From NCBI GenBank assembly GCA_030386875.1, contig CM059563.1:12728001-12792000 (forward strand): DNA of 64,000 nt, given 5' to 3'. Source of the stretch: Morinoia aosen. Its lineage: Eukaryota; Arthropoda; Malacostraca; Amphipoda; Talitridae. Shown in pieces: positions 5,705 to 31,300 of the stretch (its first letter is position 1; each line of letters opens with the position of its first letter). Made by a program: the position numbers and the translations under genes. The notes beneath the pieces were generated by a model. The model did no database searches, had not been told where the DNA came from, and saw only the letters and a program-made list of their open reading frames with translations.

Positions 5705-5866
5705 ACCAGAAAGTGCTCTATGATTCTTGTGTAGCCCAGTGACACCGGCAAAAAAAAAAAAAAAAAATTTTCCCTTTGTTCAGTATTATTGAGTGGGAAC
5801 CTTTGACTAAAATAATTAGTGTCAACGATAGTGAATAAAATACCCCTGTGCCCTGAAAAGCACACA

Positions 5867-7513
5867 ATGGGGAAACCTGACAGCCTAAACCCAAAGGCCA
5901 GTCAGCCTGTGAAAGGAAGAAAACCAAGCACTCAAACTCTCAACAATGCCCGCGCCTTGCCCTCCCCGGCAAGCCGGTTCAAAAGGCGTCAACGCTCTCC
6001 TGTTGAATCAAGTGGACCTACCAAAAAGACCGCTGTTATGACAACTGATTGTGCAAGTGAAATGCCAGTGGAAGATTTTGACGAATCTTCGGACATGAGT
6101 GGAATCATCTCTGATGAAGACCCTGAGATAAGAAAAACTCCTTCCAACCTATCAAATCTACAAATTGAAAAATCTACAGAGCAACTAACAACAAAAGAAG
6201 CAGCTCCAAACATTCGTCAAGTTCTCATCACTCCAGTAGACAAAACTTGTAACATTGGAAAAATGAATCCTATCCACACGGCACTAGCTCTGGACAAACT
6301 GTGTGGCTCAGTCAAAAAAGTAGAGCATCAGCAATCGGGAGCCATTCTTGTGACTACCAACACTCTAGAGCAAGTAAAATCATTTATGGCAGCCACTACA
6401 ATTGTCATATCTGAGAAAAGCATCAAAATTACAAGTTCTATTGCCTGGTCAAAACAATTCTCCTATGGCAAAATCTATGCACCTGAGTTTGCCTCAGACT
6501 CTCTGGAAGACTTACTAACTATGCTGAAGCCCTATAATGTGGTAGGCATCCGAAAACTATTGCTAGACCCTAACAAAGCGTCAGTGCCGCTGTATGTGCT
6601 GACATTCCTCAACCCTTCTCCTCCTGCTGAGCTGCTACTCGGGTATTGTGTTTATAAGGTTGATAAATACTACCCTAGTCCTTTGAAATGTGGTTTGTGC
6701 TGCCATTACGGCCATTCTCGAGCCCGGTGCACAAGTCGACAGCCAACTTATAGCCATTGTGGTCAGAAAGGACATTTTGTGGACTCCTGCCCAAACTTGT
6801 CTGCTCCTCCATCCTGCTCTAACTGCAAAGAAACTCATAAGGCTACTTCACGTGAGTGCTCCCACTACATGTCAGAAGTTAGAGCTTGCCATCTCACAGC
6901 TGATGAGGGGTTGAGCTTTGTGAAAGCTAGGGCTAAAGCAAGAGAGATGAGACTGTTAGAAGCTATCCAAACCAGCCCCCCAGATCAGAACTGGGAAAAA
7001 CAAAAAAGACCTACAGCAAAGGAGCTAGCTTCTCTGCAAGTTTTTCCTACGCTCACTCAACTTATGGCTCAAGAAGATGAAGTCTCTACACGGCCCTCTC
7101 AACAAACTTTACTGACAACCAAGGTACCTTCAACAGAACAAAGCACTAGAACCTTCGCAGCTTGTGCATCCTTGCCAAGCAGACCGCCAGCACTTCCTTC
7201 TCAGCATGTGCTGCAGCCTTCTTCTCAACCAGTATCCTCAGGCCAGCAACCTAACCTTCCAAATGCCATGAACCCTTTGCCTTTTAGTAGCAAAGCCAAC
7301 CAACCATCTCTCACTGCATTTAATCAAATTCCTGTTGATTTCACTCGACTCATTATTCAGGCGCTGCCAATGATTATCCGACTCTTCCTCTCCACGCAAC
7401 TCACTGAGAAAATAGAATGTTTCAAAGAGCTTGGTCAGATGCTTTCCGTAAAATCAGTTGTCACCGAAACTCTTGCAAATTTAGGACTCTCCTCAATGCA
7501 TAAATCACAATGA
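5867..7513 (+). CDS. LINE ORF1, gag-like nucleic-acid-binding protein
   Basis: Open frame of 548 residues from the first ATG (5867) to TGA at 7511-7513. The frame is open 48 bases further upstream, but without an ATG. The N-terminal third is Ser/Pro/Lys-rich and acidic in places. Three zinc knuckles follow. The first, CGLCCHYGHSRARC at 6690-6731, is a regular CX2CX4HX4C. The second (about 6750-6790) reads SHCGQKGHFVDSC and has Tyr where its first Cys is expected. The third is CSNCKETHKATSREC (about 6813-6857). This is the usual ORF1 pattern of jockey/I-type LINEs, whose product binds RNA in the retrotransposition particle. The C-terminus is Gln/Ser/Pro-rich. The stop overlaps the ORF2 start as ATGA. 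Confidence 0.85.
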   Translation: MGKPDSLNPKASQPVKGRKPSTQTLNNARALPSPASRFKRRQRSPVESSGPTKKTAVMTTDCASEMPVEDFDESSDMSGIISDEDPEIRKTPSNLSNLQIEKSTEQLTTKEAAPNIRQVLITPVDKTCNIGKMNPIHTALALDKLCGSVKKVEHQQSGAILVTTNTLEQVKSFMAATTIVISEKSIKITSSIAWSKQFSYGKIYAPEFASDSLEDLLTMLKPYNVVGIRKLLLDPNKASVPLYVLTFLNPSPPAELLLGYCVYKVDKYYPSPLKCGLCCHYGHSRARCTSRQPTYSHCGQKGHFVDSCPNLSAPPSCSNCKETHKATSRECSHYMSEVRACHLTADEGLSFVKARAKAREMRLLEAIQTSPPDQNWEKQKRPTAKELASLQVFPTLTQLMAQEDEVSTRPSQQTLLTTKVPSTEQSTRTFAACASLPSRPPALPSQHVLQPSSQPVSSGQQPNLPNAMNPLPFSSKANQPSLTAFNQIPVDFTRLIIQALPMIIRLFLSTQLTEKIECFKELGQMLSVKSVVTETLANLGLSSMHKSQ

Positions 7514-10500
7514 AACTAAAAATTCTACAGTGGAACCTCCGTTCTTTTTCTGCGCGACATCCTTACTTGACCAAACTACTTGCAGACTTGGCCTTGGATG
7601 TATTATGTTTGCAGGAAACCTTTTTGTCTCCTAACAAAAAGGTAAAACTGGCTGGTTATCAGAGCTTGGCAGCCCGTTGTGAAAGAGCTGTGGGAAGTGG
7701 AGTGGGGGTCCTTGTGGCCGTAAGCAACAGCATACCACAAACTACTATACCGCTTCCATCATCATTGGAAGAATGTGCAACGCGCATATATCTTCCTCAA
7801 CACGAGTTCACAATATGCTCTATGTATCTTCCACCATCACTACCTAACTCTGTATTAATTGCAGAGCTACCACTCTTACTTCCACTTCTACCCCCACAGT
7901 TCATTATCTCAGTAGTCGCTAATGCATATCATCCATCATGGGGTTCCTGCACTTTGGACAGCAGAGGAAATGTAATGAGCCATTGGGTAACCGCAAACAA
8001 TCTTGTGCTGTTGAACACTACAGAACCAACTTTCCTGTCTTCAACAGGTACTCTAACTCATATAGACCTGACAATAACTACCCCCGATATAGCACCTATG
8101 TTTACATGGTCACCCTTATCTGACCCTTACAACAGTGACCATTTCCCATTATTGATCTCATCAGAATGTACCACACCAACCTGCCAACAACCTAGGTGGC
8201 ATATTAAATCAGCTGATTGGGGCAAATTTCAAGAAGCCCTCTGCCTTCCAAAAACCTACCTACCTAACGCAGGCCTGTGGAGCAGTAACCACCAGCATCA
8301 CAGATGCAGCTTCTAAATCCATTCCTTGCTCTCTACCAGGAAAGAGAACACCAACAAATAGTTGGTGGAACAAAGAATGTGCAGTAGCAAGACGCCAAAA
8401 GCAGCGAGCATTATCTCGCTATAAAAACCATTTAGGAGACATTGACCTATGGATAGCCTTCAAAAAAGCTAGAGCTATTTTCAGACACTGCATAGCCAAA
8501 GCCAGGTCAAAGAGCTGGACAGACTATCTGTCTAGTATCACATGCAGAGCCCACAGTGGACAAGTCTGGAACAAAGTCCGTACACTATCTGCTAAGTTCT
8601 CCCCCAAGGCTATAGTTTTAAAGAGTGGGAATGATAACATAGCGGACCCCAAGTCAATCTCAAACATTCTTGGCCGGCAATATTCTAGAGAAAATGACTC
8701 CACTTCAAATGACCCTTGTTTCATTACCAGAAAAGAGAAAATTGGACGTGAGCTGCCTAGCCCAAAATATAACTCAACTGTATGGTACAATAAACCTTTC
8801 ACAATGAGAGAATTAACTAGAGCACTACGCAACTCCTCATCTCGAGCCCCTGGAGCTGATCGCATTCCCTTCAGCTTCCTTCAACACCTTAGTGGAAGCC
8901 AACTTGAGGTGCTGTTGAACTTCTATAATTTCTTATTCATGCATGGATTCCCACACCAGTGGCAAGAAGCCATAATTGTACCCATACTGAAACCTGGTAA
9001 ACCATCCTCTTCTGCTACATCATACCGCCCTATTGCGCTCACCAACTGTCTAGGCAAGATCATGGAAAAGATGGCAAATTGGCGACTCCAGTCCTTCTTA
9101 GAAAGAAACTCCTACTATGACCCAACTCAGAGTGGCTTTAGAGCGGGGCATAGTACACTTGATGCACTGTTTCGCTTGGAGGCATCAGTAAGGGAAGCTT
9201 TACTGACCCAAAATTACTGCCTAGCCATCTTCCTTGACATCGAGCGAGCTTTTGAATCTGTATGGCACGATGGTGTCTTATTCAAACTGCATAAACTGGG
9301 TCTTGAGGGCAATATGGCTGTCTACATCAAAAACTTTTTACAGCTCCGATCTATACGGGTGAGAGTTGCTGACAAGTTGTCAGACTCTTTTCCTCTTCTG
9401 TGTGGAGTACCTCAGGGATCGGTCATAAGCCCCACACTCTTTACACTCATTGTAAATGACCTTTTTGCTGATGTGCCTGCTCCAGTGCAACACTCTCTGT
9501 ATGCTGATGATGGAGCCATGTGGATTGTCACGTCAACTCTCACTGAGGCAAACACAGTAATGCAAACAGCACTTAACACCATTGGAAAGTGGTCCCAAAA
9601 GTGGGGTCTTCAAATCTCAGCAGCCAAAACTTCAGCTGTTTTGTTCACCCATAGGCATGACTCACCTCCTCAACTGAAGTTGGAAAATGTTTCTCTAACC
9701 TTCAAAAATAATATAAGATTTCTTGGCATCATTTTTGATAGGCATTTAACATGGAAGCCCCACATAACTTCATTGCACTCTGCATGCCAGTCAGATCTAA
9801 GACTCCTCTCAGTCATTTCAGCCAGGAGGTGGGGTGCTGATGCCACAGCCCTTCGTAGATTGTAATAGCTCTGGTTCGCTCTAAGCTCAACTACGCCTGC
9901 TTTCTATATGCAACTGCTGCTCCCACTCATCTTCTAGTGTTAGACCGCATCCAATATGCAGCGTCACGCATCATCAGTGGTGCCCTGAGATGCACACCCA
10001 CAGTTAAACTGGAAGCGGAAGCAGAGCTTATGCCTCTCTCATATCGCCGTCGCCAACTGCTGTTGTCCTATTGTGCTCAAATTCTCACCATTTCTGAGCA
10101 CCCAGTTCGAAAACTGCTGTTGGCCTACTACCCTTATGCTCTCTATGCTCACCTTAGACGTCCAATCCCTGTATCAGGCCGAGCCTACAGTGAGTTTAAG
10201 AAGCTAGGTCTAAATTTTTCCCAGATTCCCACAATTCCCATGCACTTGAGATATCTTTCAGTCCAATGCCCAGTCTTCCTGACATTAGCAGATGTACAAA
10301 AACATTCAAGAGATCCCACCAACTGGCAACAAATGTTTAATGACCTTGTTTGCAGCACATACAGCATGCACCAAATAATCTACACAGATGGATCTGTCCA
10401 AAATGACAGGGCCGGATGTGGAGTGCATGGGGAAATGTTCCAACTCAAGGCTCACCTCCCTCCTAGGACTTCTATCTTTACTGCTGAACTATATGCCATT

Positions 10501-11184
10501 TACATAGCAATTAAGTTTATAACCAACAAACCAGGAGTCTTTGTAATCTTCTCAGACTCACTAAGTGCCTTGACTGCTCTGAAATCAAACACAACTCCCA
10601 AACACTACCTGCTATACTGGATAGCAAAGGCCATCAATCAAATTCCTAGAGACAAAGTCATCCTGGAATGGGTGCCTAGCCATGTGGGTGTATCTGGAAA
10701 TGAGGCTGCAGATAAACTAGCACAGTCTGCGCTAAGCATCCCTCTGACAACTCAAATACCTAAATCCACATCAGAACTCAACTCCTATTTTGCCACCTCC
10801 ATGCACCAAGAAAGGCTGAGGGCATGGAAGCAGCTCCCACCAATCATAAATGAATTAAACCCTTCATTGATTCCTTTACCATCTTCGCTCTCACGCAGCC
10901 AACAAGTCATCACCTCAAGACTAAGACTCGGAGTCTGTAAACTGACTCATGGGCACTATTTAACTGGTTCCTCGCCTCCTTCCTGTCAAAGATGCAACTG
11001 CAAACTTACCTTGAGTCACCTACTGATAGACTGCCCTCTGTATCAAAATCATCGTCTGGCCCTGATTGCTGAGTGCAATACAAGATCTGCTTCTGTGACA
11101 ATGAACACCATCCTTGCTGCTGATTTCCCAACCAAACTGGTGATGGACTTCCTGAGAAAGTCGGAGTTCCTGCATCTCATCTGA
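7510..11184 (+). pseudogene. LINE ORF2: endonuclease, reverse transcriptase, RNase H (two frameshifts)
   Basis: Starts at ATG 7510, inside the ORF1 stop (ATGA), and ends at TGA 11182-11184. The APE endonuclease (about 7510-8160) keeps QWNLRS, LQET, HIDLTI and SDHFP. The expected GDFNAHH catalytic segment reads VVANAYH, so the Asp is lost. A frame change lies near 8258-8275. The second frame holds the RT (about 8800-9800) with YRPIALTN, FLDIERAFESVWH, GVPQGSVISPTLF and the active-site YADD. A second frame change lies near 9855-9865. The third frame holds RNase H (about 10370-10740) with all four acidic positions visible (YTDGS, TAELYAI, FSDSLSAL, GNEAADKLA), then a Cys/His knuckle, CQRCNCKLTLSHLLIDC. 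Confidence 0.88.
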
Positions 11185-11282
11185 GAAATAACTGGAGAGC
11201 AGAGTGGGGGCGCCATTTCCCAAGAAGGAGACGTGCCTCATCCCTAACAAAGTAACAAAGTAAGTATAGTTTCATAGAGAAG

Positions 11283-22300: not shown

Positions 22301-25300
22301 GAACGAATCGAGTGGCCTATTCTAGGGTTCCTACCCAAGCCCTGTGGCTGGGGTAGGATGCATTCACCTTCACTTACGTAACAGTAATATAGATAAATTA
22401 ACAGTTAACATTTACAATCATCAATCTTTACAGAATATCTTCCTGTACGTTTGATGTGACAACTCGAGAAAGTGACCGTTTCACTGATGTGTGGCTCTTC
22501 AATCACACTATTTTTTTTGCTTTTACAGTAATATTAGTGTGGTTGCAATTTCATTTCTTTATGTCAAATGTACTAAGAAGTTTAGCTTATTCTGTTTTCA
22601 AGTGTTTCTTCAGCATTCAATACGTTGGGACTTCTGCCTTAACATCTTGCTTGCAATACAACTCACCAATGGATTATTTGAAAAATTTCAACAACCTTTT
22701 AAAATTAATGGTATTTGTATTTAATGGACCAAGTTAATGTTCGGTATTATAAAATTGCTAACAACATTTGACTTTAAATTTGAGTTGAAAATTGAACTTC
22801 AGTTTAACCCATCGCACTCAACATGTTAACTGTTGGGTGACTTGTGTGCAGCCTACAGCGCAACAGCAAACGAAGCTCGGCAGAGGTGAGCGCGGTGGGC
22901 ACGTGGACTGAGGCAGAAGAGGGAGGCTGTGCAAACTGTGTCCAGGTGCGTGGGGTGACATTCTTAGTTTTCTTTTGCGGAGCCTCACTCCTGAACCTCA
23001 TACATCACCTGTGGTTTAATTTTTTCCGCAACATTGGTTACTGGACTCGTTGCGTCAGCCCCTCTGTATTTCTCCTCTTGGTGTGAAAAAACATTATTAC
23101 CTAATCATCTTGTTCCATTTATGAGATCTTAGTGCGAATGTAAGATGGGAAGTTACCTCACAATATAATTATACTGCCAAATAGCGAGAGCAGAAGTGGT
23201 TATCACGCTGTAGGACGAGATGTGAAAGTGAAGTGCACTCATGTTGAAGTAAGTGCACTTATATATGGGAACATACTGGAATATCACATGGCTAGTCCCT
23301 GAAGAAATTTGTCCACACTAGTTGAGGCGAGCGCTGGCATCTGTAGAGGAGCGGCTGGACGTCCGTAACGAGGAGCTCAAGGCTGCCAAGGAAGGCATCG
23401 AGCTACTGCAGCAGGACCTTGCACTGCTGTACCGACAACGTCAGACCAGGTGTGTGCAGGTCTGGTGCCTGGGATAGTACAGTGTTGCAGGTCTGGTGCC
23501 TGGGAGAGTACAGTGTGGCAGGTCTGGTGCCTGGGAGAGTACAGTGTGGCCCCTCAGGGGGATACAACTATTGTATCTATGGGAATTAGCGCTCCCAGGG
23601 GAAAAATGTGAGGGCCCGAGCTGAGAGTTAGGTAGGCCTTCTTTTTGTTGAAATAAAATGTTTTTTGTTATGTTAAGGACCACCTTTTTTCGGTTCACTA
23701 CTGTCCTGTTTTTCAGCCCCTCTGACTTTCTTCTTCAACTTTTATCTTATTTCATGAACTTCTTTCCCATCTTACTGCTTCTATGCCCTTTCTGCATAGA
23801 TTCCTCATTTTCTTATCTCCATACTGAATGGTGCCTTCCTCCTTCCTCTCTTCGATACGCTCTATTTTTCCAGCGGTTAGGGAGGCTTAAACTAACTTAT
23901 AATCTTATAATCTTAGTACAGTGTGGCAGGTCTGGTGCCTGGGAGAGTACAGTGTTGCTTGTCTGGTGCCTGGGAGAGTACAGTGTGGCAGGTCTGGTGC
24001 CTGGGAGAGTACAGTGTGGCAGGTCTGGTGCCTGGGAGAGTACAGTGTGGCAGGTCTGGTGCCTGGGAGAGTACAGTGTGGCAGGTCTGGTGCCTGGGAG
24101 AGTACAGTGTGGCAGGTCTGGTGCCTGGGAGAGTACAGTGTGGCAGGTCTGGTGCCTGGGAGAGTACAGTGTGGCAGGTCTGGTGCCTGGGAGAGTACAG
24201 TGTTGCAGGTCCGGTGTCTGGCAGGGATGCATGAGACTGCTGGCTCATTGGGGGTGTTATGAAATGTTACACTTGAGACATTATTTGTGTCCCGACTTGA
24301 ACAGTTTTATTATGTACAGTGTATCAACGACTTAATACTTTAGAATTTAGCATACATCCGTGGCCTCTCAGGTATGATGTTAGGCCAAATAGATCCCACT
24401 CCTGAAGTTGGCGTTAATCTTTGGCCACTAAATTTTTCCAAGTTCAGAAAAATATGCGAGAGATGAGAGAAATCCTGTGATTAGGGTAGAGGCACACCAC
24501 GGAAGTTCAGTACTCTTCTCTTGATACTACAAAAGCATTTGGTGATACTGTATCGCGTTGCTTGCTATATTCTCCATGTACGTGAAAGAGAGGAAGTTTT
24601 GTAAGGTTTGTGAACTACTAGAAGTAAAATATGTGTAGTTTGTATGTTGCAATAGTGAGAGATTCAGTCACAATAATGATGCTTGCGTGAACTATACTGA
24701 GGTTCCCTATTTGGTCGCTCATTGGGGCGACAAGAAGATGCAGTAGTAAAAGCTCTAAACAAGGCAAACTCTAGAATTCGCACTTGGAGAACGAAATCAG
24801 TAATGAAATAGTAAAACTTGTGATTAAAAATGCTATAAGTTATCACGATGAGCGCATTTGGCATGGGCTAACAGATGAGGACTTGCTATTACTCACCTTT
24901 TTTTTACAGTATTTAATTTTTGTTTTGTTTTTCTCATTCATTTTGCTAATACTGATGTGTTCTGTGGTTGTGGTTTATCTGCAGCTCCTTCTCAGGGGGA
25001 TGTAACTATTGTATCTATGGAAACTAGTGCTCCCTTATTTTTGTTGAAATAAAATATTTTTTTTGCTTTGTTAAGGACCATCTTTTTCAGTTCACTGCTG
25101 TCCTGTTTTTCAGCACCTACTACTTTCTTCAATTTTCATCTTGTTTCATGAACTTCTTTCCCAATTTACTTTTTCTATGCCCCTTCTGCATTCCCTTATC
25201 TCCACACTAAATGGTGTCTTCCTCCTTTCTCTCTTTGATACACTTTTTTTGTAGCGGTTAGGGAGGCTTAAGCTAACCTATAATCTAATCTTATCTGCAG

Positions 25301-28300
25301 CTCTCAGTTGGACGAAAGAAACTGCAGTGACGAACATCTTCTTGAAATTCTGCGCGAAAAAGACCGAAGCTTGGTAGAGTTTGAGCAAAGCGACTGCGTT
25401 CAGAAGAACGAGATCGCCGAGCTGAAGCAAAAGACTCAACGACTCAACGAGCAAGTGGACCTGTTCACCACTCTTGTCAAGGTGAGGCCATGCTTTTCTG
25501 TCGCTTCTTAAGCTGTCCTAGGTCATGTGTGTTCAAAATTACGATCCGTGATGCAGCTGGTCAATGTTCCACTATAGGATCGTAGAATACAATAAGTAGT
25601 TGAAATATTGTATGACCTCTGCTGTTTACTATTCTCTAGTTGAAAATATTCTATGACCTCTGCTGTTTGCTATTCTCTTGCTGAGGAGTTGTTCTAGTGT
25701 TCATGTACATGAGTTCATTGAGGTCTGTCTTTATAGTTCATGTGCAAATGAAAACATAACTTACATGCTAGCATTGAAATTTCGTAGTTGTGTAGGTTAT
25801 ATTTATTAACATGCTGTATGTTGCTTGTTTTTTAAGGCATTTCAAGATTTTTTCTTTGTCAGGCAAAGGACAACGCTATCAGGAGCATCTCCGATGAACT
25901 GGAGGAATTGAAATCTCGTTGCTCCATCAGTTCTCCTCCTCTGACCAATAAAAGCCCTCATTCAGTGCAACTTTCTTCTGGCATCCATAACTTCTTGGTT
26001 TCTTCTCGGGAGGGTAAAAGTGGTGTTAGATTGGAAGGTCATCTCTGTAACACCGCCGTGTGTGCGAGAAATGGCCGGTGTTCTTTGAATAAAATTCTAA
26101 AAGAAGAAACTGCGACCTTAACGTCTTCTGACAACCAAGGTCTTAAGGAAAATTTCTTGCCGCAAAAGCACTTTGAAAATTTGGTCTTCAAGCAGAATTC
26201 TTTTGTGTCGTCCGATTCCGATTTGCCTTTCTTGTGCAAAGATCAGATGAAGATGAACGGCTCTCGCCGCAGAAAATCCACAGACTCTGCGAGTACCGAT
26301 TCTGAACCTTACTCGTCTTGCTTTGATTTGGTCGCCGATCTTTCCGAACTATCGTCTTCTAAATCAGAGTTGTCTAAAACTCGTCGTGTTACTAGTTATT
26401 CACTTGCATCTGATGACTCAACACCTTGTGCAGACTTGCACCCAACTTTGAAGGATTCTATTTCAGAGAGTGTCCATGAATCACAAGTAGATGGAGACCC
26501 TGGTGAGAGCCTATTAGACGCTTCCTGTACTAGCACTCTCACATACAGTAATGATGATGGATCGTCTAACACAAATGATGCTTCAGAGTTGGGGAAAAAT
26601 ACACATGAGGCACATCACGATAAGCCAACAAGTGTCAGACAGAATGATTTTCACTCTCGGTTCATTGAAAAGCCTTTGTTGAACCCTGAAGAAACTTCGC
26701 CTCATCGACCTGCTGCTTTAAACAAGACCCTCGCTGATCTGGCAGATCAACAAGTAGGGCTATTCGACCAGCTGTTGACTGACGATATAATGATGTCTTC
26801 TACTGGAACGGACAGTTTGTCGGTGGTGTTGGATCACTCTAGTGTCTCGGACTCAACAGATCAGGAAGTGAAATTGGAGAGGATGAGCAAGGAGAGAGAC
26901 CGCTATCAAGAGTCGTATCGCGCCTATAAAGCGCAGAATTCTTTCTTACACAAGCAAATTCTGGAGCTCAGCCAGGCGTCTGACTTGATGAAGGAGCGCG
27001 AAGAAAGACTCAAGCAGTAAGTATTCTAACCAATCTCTGTGCCATTATCAGATTCATATAACACCTAATGTGTTCCTAGCGTTCATGCTAATCATACATG
27101 AGTCTCCATGGTTTTGTTTCCAATAACTATTTTCTGGGAATATTTTTTGTCTAAAATAACACGTTCTGGCATTTCTTAAAAGGTAAGGCTGTGTCACGAG
27201 ACGTTAAGTTTAAGCTAACTCTTTGAACGTCCGTTTGGAGGAATTTAAATTCCCAGACAGTAAAAGAGGAAATGGAAAGTTCAGAGATGAAATACACACA
27301 GGATAAGGAAAGAAAGGACTGAGGAAAATAGAAACAGGGAGTATTCTAAGTTCATCTATCGATGCATCAGGATCAATACGGGATAATGACAACTATCAAT
27401 AGAGCATTTCACTGCTTTCATTTAAATTTGAGAATGAACACAATAGTTATTGGCATCAAAAATTATTACGACCCTGGGAAACATTTCACGTTGGCGGCTA
27501 ACGATTTATATAGTTAAAACCCAACAAAATGTACTTAATCAGTACTACGTCTCGTGCTTGACCATCCCCACGTGCCTCGTTCTTAGCTGTCACTGCGTAT
27601 CATCTCTGTACCACCTGACACACACACTGCCGTAATACATTCTTACTAAAACACTCCAGAGCCCACGTTCGCTTTTGAGATCCTGAGCCATCAACAAAGC
27701 CGTCATAGCTCCCATCCTAACTTCATTTAACGCAACGGCTAGCTAACAACCGAGGCTCTTGCCATTGACTTTGTTAAAGAGCCCTTACTACTGTTTCCAA
27801 ACATTAGAAATAGAGCAAGGGGGACGGACATGGCATCCAGGTTTTTGTGATTTTGGAAATTCAGCAAAGTAAAATTAATGTGCTTGCCTGCCGTACGACC
27901 AGTTGGGTTATTTGCAACTTTCGAGCTAGATAAACCATTCTGATACATCTCTCCTGGTTATTATCCTATCTGGTATTGTTCTCACAAATTTTAGCGGTTT
28001 GAATCACGAGACCAGCTCGGTTGAATGAACCAATTTTTTAACATAACTTTAAATTTTGCACGCTCTTGTTTGTTCGACACTCAAATGTTATAGGAAGTCT
28101 TCTGAAAAATATATTTTATACCAATAGCATGTGTTTCATTTAATTACTCATTAATAAATTCATTTTATCAATTTTCATCTGCATTCATTGTTTCATTTCT
28201 TTTCTGATGATTCTATCCGCCATATCTATCGACGATCTATGTCGGTGCTCGGTAGAAGCGTATGTTGTAGATCATTGTTATAAATTTTTTTACAGATTCG

Positions 28301-31300
28301 TCCAGTTTTCTTAGGAAAAGTTTCCAATTGCGGATGTTTATGTAATAAAAATTATACCTTATTAGCAAGCATAATTGATGTTGTGAGAACATTTCTTACC
28401 TAAGGTCATGATTACACCTGCTTAACCTATTTCATTACTCAGCTATCATTGGTATTTATTACCCTGATTACTTGAATGTCTTTATCACAGGGTGCTGAGA
28501 AATAACACGTATATACGTTTTTTTGGAAATTTATAATAGAGATCCTCAGGTGTTGGTGAACTCATTCTTTGATGAGCTTGCGGTTTTTGGGTGTGCTGAT
28601 GGTGTGCTTTCTTTCTCATCGTGGCCATGCTCATTATATCGCTTTACTAGTCTGAGACCGTCTTATTTGAAACGCCGAACAAACCTTCAATTTCACGTAG
28701 GGGTTTTCTTGCCAAAATAGCTCCAAAATGGCACCATGGTTATCTGACAGTCTTAAAACCCACAATAAATCGTTACCATCACTGTGAAAAAGTATACAGG
28801 AATTAAAAAGGGCCAAAAATTGCTAAAAACAAAAATAATATAGCCACCGTACAATACATTCATTATAGGCAATGTCATAAGTTTGAGATTTAATTTTCTG
28901 TTCTTCTTTATAGAATCTGACCGTGTAAACGTCTGTTAATCTTACAAAATTTAAGTTCTCTGTTCTCAAGTTAAGACCACAATGTGATACCTGATGACGG
29001 TATGAGGGCCCGAGCTGAGAGGTAGGCCTTCTTTTTAATAAAATAAAAGGTTTTTTGTTATGTTAAGAATCACTTTTTTTTGGTTCACTGTTCTGTTTTC
29101 AGCACCTACTACTTTCTTCTTCAACTTTCATATTGTTTCATAAACTTCTTTCTCAAGCTACTATATCTATGCTCCTTTTGCATTGATTCTGCATTCCCTT
29201 ATCTCCAGCCGGAGCTGAGAGTTGGGTAGGCTTTCTTTTTGTTGAAATGAAATGTTTTTGTTATGTTAAGGACCTTCTTTTTTTGGTTAACTGCTGTCCA
29301 GTTTTTCAGCACCTACTACTGAAAAAAACAAACACCTCCACTACAGCACCTCCTTCAACTTTGGTCTTGTTTCATAATCTTCTTTCACAACTTACTGTTT
29401 CTATGCCCTTTCTGCGTAAATTCCGCGTTTCCTTAACTCCATACTAAATGATGCCTTCCTCCTTCCTCTCTTTGGATCGTATTTGTTGCTGCGGGGATGG
29501 AGGCTAAAACTAACGACTAATCTAATCTAAGCCCCTTATCTCCATACTAAATGGTGCCTTCCTCTTTCCTTGAACGCTTTATTAGCGGTTAGGGAGGCTT
29601 AAACTAACATCTAATCAGCGTGATGACGGTGCAATGTGCAGCGAGTGCAGCGTGTGGGAGGCGCGGTTCGAGCGCGTGCGCAGCAAGTACCTGGTGCTGC
29701 TCAACGACCTGCACAGCCCGCCCTCCCAGCAGCACGACAAGGACACCCTCGCCCGCATGCTCTCTGATGCCCTCAGTCACACTCCGCACTTTGGGTTCGT
29801 TGCACGAACTCACATTTAGCTTTCTTTTATCATTGAGTCTTGCTTATGTGTGGTCCTCTCAAAAAATGTGTTGTTATGTTTGAAGTGGGGACTGCAAATA
29901 GAAGGCTCCATAGTAAGTGTAAACCAGTTTGAGTGTGTGCGTTGACTGTATGAACATAAACTGTATTTGAGTCCTGTAATTTCATATCGAGGATTAAGTT
30001 TCAAATAAAAACTAGTTTCATGTACTTCATGCCGTTTCTTAGAGTAGTTTTTTATGTTCCGTAAAAAAACAGGGAATTTGAATGAAGGCCGCAAGCATGG
30101 TGGTCAGATTGACTTTTTCTGACAAAGTCCTCAAGCTTTGGCTTTTTCTTATGAAGTTAGACCATAAAGACCACTCAGCGTCTAGCAACCCTGTAAGGTT
30201 TTCAGGTATTGATTAGGGTTAATGGTTAAATACAGAATGTTCGATTTACTGGGAAACAATTTAATTTGCAGAAAATGAATGCTTTGATTACACTGGTTCA
30301 AAATGACAAACACTGCGCTTCTACTCATTAGATTGAATATGCTTCACAATCTAGGTTGCGTGAACTTCATGCTCTTCATTGCTAAAATTCATCAGACTAT
30401 GAGCTGTAAATTACCCTCTCAATCTCATAGTAGTTGATTTATTAGTATTAGATTTACTTACATCATGATGAAAAGCGTTTAAATACATGTACAGAGTGCC
30501 ATCATCTCCTTTACCTTTTTCAACCTAAATTTTTTCTAGCTGCTTGACAGTATAAAATTGATTTTCCTTGGTCTTATCTTTTTTCCCTTGCAACCTTGTA
30601 CGTACGTGTTGCAATGTATATTTATATCAGCCTGAATTTCTTCACCTACCTCTCATGAGTCATGACGTCTCTTTCTCTAAGCCTGAATTCTTTTCAAAGG
30701 CCCTACACGTATTACAAAATATAAGGAGTATGTCTGCATTGTATGTCAGTAGCATTGTATGTTACTGACATACGATGCTATCAATAGCATCGTATGTTGA
30801 TAGCATTGTATGTTGATACTATCGTATGTAAGTAGCATTGCAGCTCATATCTGTGTGTTGCGTCAGTGCGGTGAGCAAGAACGGCCGCTACTATGACGAG
30901 TGCGGGTTTTGCATCACAGCAGCTGACGAAGACTCCCTGCAGCGCTGCGCAACCTTCCTCAGCAGGCAAGCGCAGACCAACGTGGGCGAGGAGCTGCACC
31001 AGGTTTGTGTGGCCGGAGTATGATCTTCATGTTGAACTGTTGGTGCAAATTCAACCTTTCGTACTTTGAAATGCAAGAGATCCATATTTGTTAATGCATG
31101 TATTGTCCACGAAAGGAATGTCAGTTGTTGAATGGCGATGATCATTTTTTCACCAATTTTGTCCTGAGAATGATGATTTTATTTTGCGAACGTTTGTTGC
31201 GCAGGTGAAGCGGACGACCACGGCGTGGGAAGCGGCGCTGGCGAGCGCGTCCGGAGCGCTGCCTTCCCTGCAGGTGCCGGTGCTCAAACACCTCATCAGG

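What the first reader, a model, noticed from the sequence alone, without database searches (positions are those of the whole stretch)
24975..25303. A SINE duplicated a 3' splice site through its own target-site duplication
The 13-bp duplication TTATCTGCAGCTC on both sides of SINE copy 3 includes the AG acceptor and the first three coding bases of TBC1D2 exon 7. The gene therefore has two identical acceptors 316 bp apart: the old one with its pyrimidine tract upstream of the SINE, and a new one whose upstream context is SINE tail. Use of the old one would read into the SINE and stop after about 14 codons.
Basis: partly seen in the sequence, partly recalled or inferred. Interest (0 to 1): 0.8.

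Follow-up and report, generated by a model that had tools for sequence, protein, structure and literature searches.

The report
SINE duplicated a gene's splice acceptor
A short jumping element landed exactly on the start of an exon in an arthropod TBC1D2 gene and copied the splice signal, so that only the copy behind the element gives an intact protein; the same thing has happened in at least four other genes of this genome, perhaps because the element's own tail can stand in for the splice signals it displaced.

Summary
A 303-bp SINE-like retroposon copy (24988-25290, sense) is flanked by an exact 13-bp duplication, TTATCTGCAGCTC, holding the AG acceptor and first three exon bases of a TBC1D2 exon (25301-25481). 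Exon phases show that only the downstream acceptor keeps the frame (1,215 residues placed); the upstream one reads into the element and stops at codon 15. The copy is old (8.7% diverged plus deletions), so the new acceptor has presumably sufficed for long. The family's 3' end brings a CTAAC branch-point-like motif, here 25 nt before the exon with no AG between. Genome-wide (19,152 exact element starts) I found the same configuration in four further genes: NDUFA8, STT3B, an ALDH3-type dehydrogenase and CEPT1/CHPT1 (4 of 100 examined copies with TGCAG in the 5' duplication; 0 of 60 antisense controls; p 0.30, not significant). In all five a CTAAC/CTAAT adenine lies 24-28 nt before the exon. A close precedent exists: the canine merle SINE sits on the PMEL acceptor, but antisense and harmfully. 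What looks new is sense orientation, apparent tolerance and recurrence within one family. Splice usage is untested: no RNA data were available.

The parts
24975..24987 (+). upstream copy of the target-site duplication, TTATCTGCAGCTC; old acceptor AG at 24983-24984
24988..25290 (+). SINE-like retroposon copy, sense orientation, with 42-, 11- and 3-bp internal deletions relative to the majority of copies; 26 substitutions in 298 aligned sites (8.7%)
25291..25303 (+). downstream copy of the duplication; new acceptor AG at 25299-25300
25273..25277 (+). CTAAC branch-point-like motif in the 3' end of the element; adenine 25276 is 25 nt before the exon, no AG between
   Evidence: CTAAC present in 24 of the 29 copies L002-L030
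25301..25481 (+). TBC1D2 exon following the new acceptor (C TCT CAG TTG ... GTC AAG|gtgagg)
23322..23449 (+). preceding exon, donor phase 2 (ACC AG|gtgtgtgc), compatible with AG|C at 25301
24936..24984 (+). old acceptor context (CTAAT and CTGAT branch-like motifs, T/G-rich tract, CTGCAG)
   Evidence: sequence; acceptor score 8.0
25100..25113 (+). decoy acceptor inside the element (GTCCTGTTTTTCAG), score 6.8; used in phase it meets a stop at codon 33
29003..29616 (+). second sense SINE cluster of the same family, ending 25 bases before the exon at 29642; its edges carry TGATGACGGT (28992-29001 and 29621-29630)
29642..29794 (+). TBC1D2 exon whose acceptor lies just downstream of that second SINE cluster

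Best explanation
A SINE-like retroposon inserted in sense orientation by target-primed reverse transcription into the 3' splice site of TBC1D2; staggered nicking duplicated 13 bp containing the AG and the first exon bases. The transcript now has two identical acceptor cores 316 nt apart. The downstream one is the productive site: the 3' end of the element supplies a branch-point-like CTAAC at -25 and an AG-free (TAATC)n tail, and the duplication supplies ...TCTGCAG|C. The upstream acceptor, if used, gives a short truncated product and probably nonsense-mediated decay. Shown: anatomy, phases, stop, divergence of the copy, recurrence in four more genes. Inferred: the insertion mechanism (from its signature), that the downstream site is the main one in vivo, that CTAAC is the branch point, and any leak into the upstream site.
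For: Exact duplication at the element edges; 5' end and tail shared with other copies; open frame over 15 placed exons only through 25301, with PH (E 2.7e-10) and TBC (E 1.5e-49) domains. Copy 8.7% diverged, so the gene has lived with it. The acceptor score of the new site (5.0) is within the range of the gene's other 13 placed acceptors (-4.5 to 12.6). Same configuration in NDUFA8 (E 5e-9; exon with one match in the genome), STT3B (E 4e-27), ALDH3-type (E 4e-7) and CEPT1/CHPT1 (E 1e-14). CTAAC/CTAAT adenine at -24 to -28 in 5 of 5, no AG to the acceptor in 4 of 5; the upstream acceptor runs into a stop at codon 14-15 in the 4 genes that could be read.
Against: No RNA evidence at all. The old acceptor scores higher (8.0 against 5.0) on a matrix built from only 12 acceptors, and it comes first in the transcript. 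In STT3B an AG lies between the CTAAC and the acceptor (at -18). The element holds decoy AGs (scores 6.4, 8.9, 6.8, 3.9, 5.0). The -24 to -28 spacing follows partly from the element's structure and tail length, so it is compatible with, not proof of, branch-point use. Copies with CTAAC/CTAAT do not carry significantly more confirmed exons than copies with a CTTTC tail (4 of 48 against 0 of 27, p 0.29). Identity of the two 13-mers at this divergence is not proof of constraint (chance 0.09 to 0.31).
Confidence: 0.76

Rival explanations
1. The upstream acceptor is still the main site, so the insertion makes a largely non-functional gene.
For: The old acceptor scores higher and is first in the transcript; its upstream context is intact.
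Against: Old copy, frame otherwise open over 15 placed exons, and the same state in NDUFA8, whose exon has one match in the genome and which is essential by recall, make chronic loss unlikely.
Confidence: 0.12
2. Both acceptors are used in a regulated ratio, the upstream one serving as a poison switch.
For: Two identical acceptor cores 316 nt apart with an in-frame stop at codon 15.
Against: No evidence of regulation was found; none could be looked for without RNA.
Confidence: 0.2
3. The element is an introner that makes new introns.
For: Introners also take a splice site from the target-site duplication (PMC9860276, passages read).
Against: In the four genes whose 5' flank was read (TBC1D2, NDUFA8, STT3B, ALDH3-type) an acceptor-like intron end already lies upstream of the element, and the element does not begin with a donor-like GT.
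Confidence: 0.03
4. Assembly artefact: a misjoined repeat made the direct repeat.
For: None found; reads are not available.
Against: The edges agree with the independent family consensus, and the exon phases fit this order.
Confidence: 0.02

Closest known systems
Canine merle SINE (SINEC_Cf) in PMEL
   Same: SINE at the intron 10/exon 11 boundary, inserted into the original acceptor with a 15-bp target-site duplication (PMC7349775, passages read; PMC6091007, passages read).
   Different: Merle is antisense, its poly(T) acts as a pyrimidine tract for a cryptic acceptor inside the SINE, and it disturbs splicing. Here the element is sense and old, and the acceptor behind it is the one that keeps the frame; several genes of one genome show it.
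Introners (PMC9860276, passages read)
   Different: Introners create introns, many with DNA-transposon signatures; here a retroposon lands on an existing acceptor and no intron is gained.
Alu/MIR exonization (recalled; PMC2766253 seen only in the listing)
   Same: A SINE contributes splicing signals to a host intron.
   Different: No SINE sequence enters the intact mRNA; the SINE gives context upstream of the acceptor, not exon.

Membership tests
SINE | short non-coding element, many dispersed copies | tested here: met
   355-bp consensus; 19,152 exact 18-base 5' ends
SINE | non-LTR insertion signature: target-site duplications and 3' simple-repeat tail | tested here: met
SINE | RNA polymerase III promoter / tRNA, 5S or 7SL head | tested here: inconclusive
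   no Rfam match at gathering score and no tRNA in the window, which holds several copies; no A and B box pair in the consensus within the mismatches allowed
SINE | 3' end shared with a partner LINE | not tested
   no search made
merle-type acceptor-duplicating SINE insertion | target-site duplication spans a 3' splice site | tested here: met
merle-type acceptor-duplicating SINE insertion | antisense element with poly(T) tract | tested here: not met
   element is sense with (TAATC)n tail
introner | insertion creates a new intron in coding sequence | tested here: not met
   acceptor-like context already upstream in the four genes read; no intron-less ortholog could be sought
TBC1D2 | PH domain, coiled coil, C-terminal TBC domain in one gene | tested here: met
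   PH and TBC by Pfam on the placed exons; coiled coil by eye only; the name TBC1D2 rests on recalled human sequence

The most novel reading that the evidence does not exclude
A SINE family whose 3' end works as a portable 3' splice-site module: a branch-point motif (CTAAC) followed by an AG-free tail rich in further CTAAT motifs, so that a sense insertion whose target-site duplication carries an AG rebuilds the acceptor it breaks. A preference for T-rich nick sites would steer sense copies into polypyrimidine tracts, and acceptors across the genome have been replaced this way many times with little cost.
Probability: 0.37. Interest if true: 0.75.

Novelty: new variant of a known kind. Interest (0 to 1): 0.55.

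Why it matters
Insertions on splice sites are expected to be destructive. Here one family may carry what it destroys, which would help explain how high-copy retroposons persist inside genes, and it gives at least five natural pairs of near-identical acceptor cores with different upstream context. That makes a direct test of what a 3' splice site needs (branch point, AG-free zone, order of AGs) possible from ordinary RNA-seq.

Tried and rejected
Empty-site ortholog: none held; the exon stretch matches only itself. Constraint on the upstream 13-mer: identity is not significant for the age. TTTCAG-type copies: 78 in the genome, 20 fetched, none confirmed; L073 looked coding, but both flanks of that SINE read open (by eye) and Pfam was negative, so it is more likely an insertion inside an ORF. 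L090 rejected as uncertain (similar motif on both sides). L065, L101, L152 and L154 look coding but have no homology support and are not counted (L065 Pfam only; L101 Pfam and PDB; L152 PDB and Pfam; L154 not searched by homology). Antisense L123 lies beside tandem copies of its acceptor, 170 nt before the last copy and the exon, and is not counted. Antisense candidates had no Pfam match above cut-off (L207, L214, L215, L218, L222, L117; L123, L125; weak: L125 DUF4817 E 0.005, L222 E 0.1) and four had no PDB match below E 0.5 (L207, L220, L214, L218); L113 and L109 were not searched (L109 is a simple repeat). Sense against antisense is not significant: 4 of 100 against 0 of 60, p 0.30; by coding score 6 of 100 against 1 of 60, p 0.26. 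A first count of CTAAC (27 of 28) was circular, because the pattern used to find the 3' end asked for it; it was redone (24 of 29). The first coding score used wrong exon edges and was redone. Literature: the listings showed no title or abstract start on this SINE or on recurrent sense-oriented acceptor duplication, and one search returned none; the library is limited. Organism: mitochondrial COX1 reads as arthropod from recall; species not determined.
Full report
Observation. The direct repeat TTATCTGCAGCTC at 24975-24987 and 25291-25303 is real and exact. The 303 bases between are a copy of a dispersed element. From 29 other copies chosen by similarity (loci L002-L030) I built a 355-bp consensus running from CCCCTCAGGGGGATACAA to ...GGCTTAAACTAACCTATAATCT with a (TAATC)n tail. 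In 28 copies (from L002-L066) where both ends could be read, the longest shared stretch between the flanks was 5-15 bp, 9 or more in 23; this is the signature of a non-LTR retroposon of SINE type. There are 19,152 exact 18-base 5' ends in the 1.99-Gb genome. No polymerase III head was recognised, so 'SINE' is a description of form.

The gene. I placed 15 exons on the + strand between 16043 and 37523 with one open frame of 1,215 residues; the 3' end of the gene was not placed. Each junction is in phase except 17916/20685, where an exon is probably missing. Pfam finds a PH domain (E 2.7e-10) and a RabGAP-TBC domain (E 1.5e-49) in the joined exons. The exon in question is 25301-25481; the preceding donor is in phase 2 and AG|C gives serine. 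The old acceptor (24984|24985) yields SSFSGGCNYCIYGN and a stop, and the five best-scoring AGs inside the element meet stops at codons 3 to 33.

Age. The copy differs from the consensus at 26 of 298 sites and has 42-, 11- and 3-bp deletions. At ordinary neutral rates (recalled, rough) that is tens of millions of years, so this is not a fresh mutation. Since the placed exons are intact, the new acceptor has presumably carried the gene for that time. The perfect identity of the two 13-mers is not evidence of constraint: at this divergence the chance is 0.31 for one copy unchanged and 0.09 for both.

Why the new acceptor could work. CTAAC stands at the 3' end of 24 of the 29 copies L002-L030. In TBC1D2 its second adenine (25276) is 25 nt before the exon, with no AG between. 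On a weight matrix from 12 other acceptors of the gene the new site scores 5.0 and the old 8.0; leave-one-out scores of the other 13 placed acceptors run from -4.5 to 12.6. Both sites look usable, and the matrix does not favour the new one.

Recurrence. I searched the genome for element starts preceded by TGCAG within 0-6 bases (130 copies, reversed-pattern control 0). The tool listed 100 places and I fetched all 100 listed (30, 20, 40). Four are followed, after the 3' copy of the duplication, by an exon with homology to solved proteins: NDUFA8 (L049; E 5e-9; that exon has one match in the genome), STT3B (L148; E 4e-27), a fatty-aldehyde-dehydrogenase-like ALDH3 (L153; E 4e-7), and CEPT1/CHPT1 (L194; E 1e-14). 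The 5' flanks of NDUFA8, STT3B and ALDH3 end in the duplicated acceptor; for CEPT1 only the matched bases TGCAGGTGCCA before the element were seen. The duplications are not always perfect: NDUFA8 (TCTGTATTGCAG / TCTATATTGCAG) and ALDH3 (TCTGTGTTGCAGG / TCTGTGTCGCAGG) differ at one base. Some of the 100 loci are near-duplicates of each other. TBC1D2 itself is not found by that pattern, because its element start differs.

In all five genes a CTAAC or CTAAT adenine of the element lies 24-28 nt before the exon, and in four of five no AG intervenes (STT3B has one at -18). In the four genes whose 5' side was read, the old acceptor runs into a stop at codon 14 or 15. Of the 100 copies, 48 have CTAAC or CTAAT, 27 a CTTTC-type tail, and 25 neither or no recognisable end; the four confirmed exons all fall in the first class, but 4 of 48 against 0 of 27 is not significant (p 0.29).

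Control. For insertion in the opposite orientation I searched CTGCA before the element (132 copies) and fetched 60 of the 100 listed. None was confirmed as an acceptor by homology: eight candidate peptides had no Pfam match above cut-off, and four had no PDB match below E 0.5. The PDB check of the antisense set covers only these four. By a codon score with a 99% threshold from 1,037 sites in parts of the window taken as non-coding, 6 of 100 sense copies and 1 of 60 antisense copies (L109, a simple repeat) exceed it; of the six sense copies, three are among the four confirmed genes (NDUFA8 scores below the threshold). Six of 100 at a 1% rate has p 0.0005, but sense against antisense is not significant (p 0.26; 0.30 for homology). 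I therefore claim recurrence, not a proven orientation effect. Among TTTCAG-type copies 20 of 78 were looked at and none was confirmed.

Second case in the same gene. A sense SINE cluster (29003-29616) of the same family ends 25 bases before the exon at 29642; its edges carry the 10-mer TGATGACGGT (28992 and 29621). Here the acceptor itself was not duplicated, but its upstream context was replaced, and an AG of the sequence ATCAGCG lies between the element's CTAAC and the acceptor.

Target preference. In 13 copies of L002-L030 with clean edges, T is found in 11 of 13 on each side of the nick. A T-rich nick site on the sense strand would bring sense copies into pyrimidine tracts; this is a small sample that includes near-duplicate loci.

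Comparison. The dog merle allele is the nearest known case: a SINE inserted into the original acceptor at the PMEL intron 10/exon 11 boundary with a 15-bp duplication, but antisense, with a cryptic acceptor inside the SINE (PMC7349775 and PMC6091007, passages read). Introners recruit splice sites from target-site duplications too, but make introns (PMC9860276, passages read). The kind is therefore known; the variant (sense, apparently tolerated, repeated in one family whose tail resembles a 3' splice-site context) did not appear in the listings of my searches.

Noticed in passing
23450-23550 and 23915-24221: A 31-bp minisatellite starts right at the donor of exon 23322-23449 and its unit holds a donor-like CAG|GTCTGG; another SINE copy (23550-23913) sits inside it.
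   Followed up: partly
window 16712-56298: All 13 BLAST fragments of this SINE found in the window (about 9 clusters) are in the same orientation as the TBC1D2 gene, although several lie beyond the exons I placed (p about 0.004 for 9 of 9).
   Followed up: no
29003-29616: Nested or tandem SINE fragments directly upstream of the exon at 29642, changing its branch-point region.
   Followed up: partly
about 5860-11190: A non-LTR retrotransposon with a zinc-knuckle ORF and an endonuclease/reverse transcriptase/RNase H-like ORF, judged by eye only.
   Followed up: no
G000:C27: Several COX1 matches without stop codons lie on one large contig, perhaps joined bacterial contamination; COX1 copies with 8 TGA each lie on C28, C29 and C26.
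   Followed up: no
L123 (G000:C4:89617090-89617370): An exon-like start preceded by three tandem copies of its own acceptor region (ATTGCAG ending at 21, 106 and 191 of the turned locus), beside an antisense SINE of the same family.
   Followed up: partly
L065, L101, L152, L154: Further sense copies followed by coding-looking sequence after the duplicated CAG, without homology support; possible additional cases.
   Followed up: partly
the 100 sense loci L037-L066, L087-L106, L147-L186, L194-L203: The family has at least two 3'-end types: CTAAC followed by (TAATC)n, and CTTTC followed by (TAA)n (48 with CTAAC/CTAAT and 27 with CTTTC among 100 copies).
   Followed up: partly
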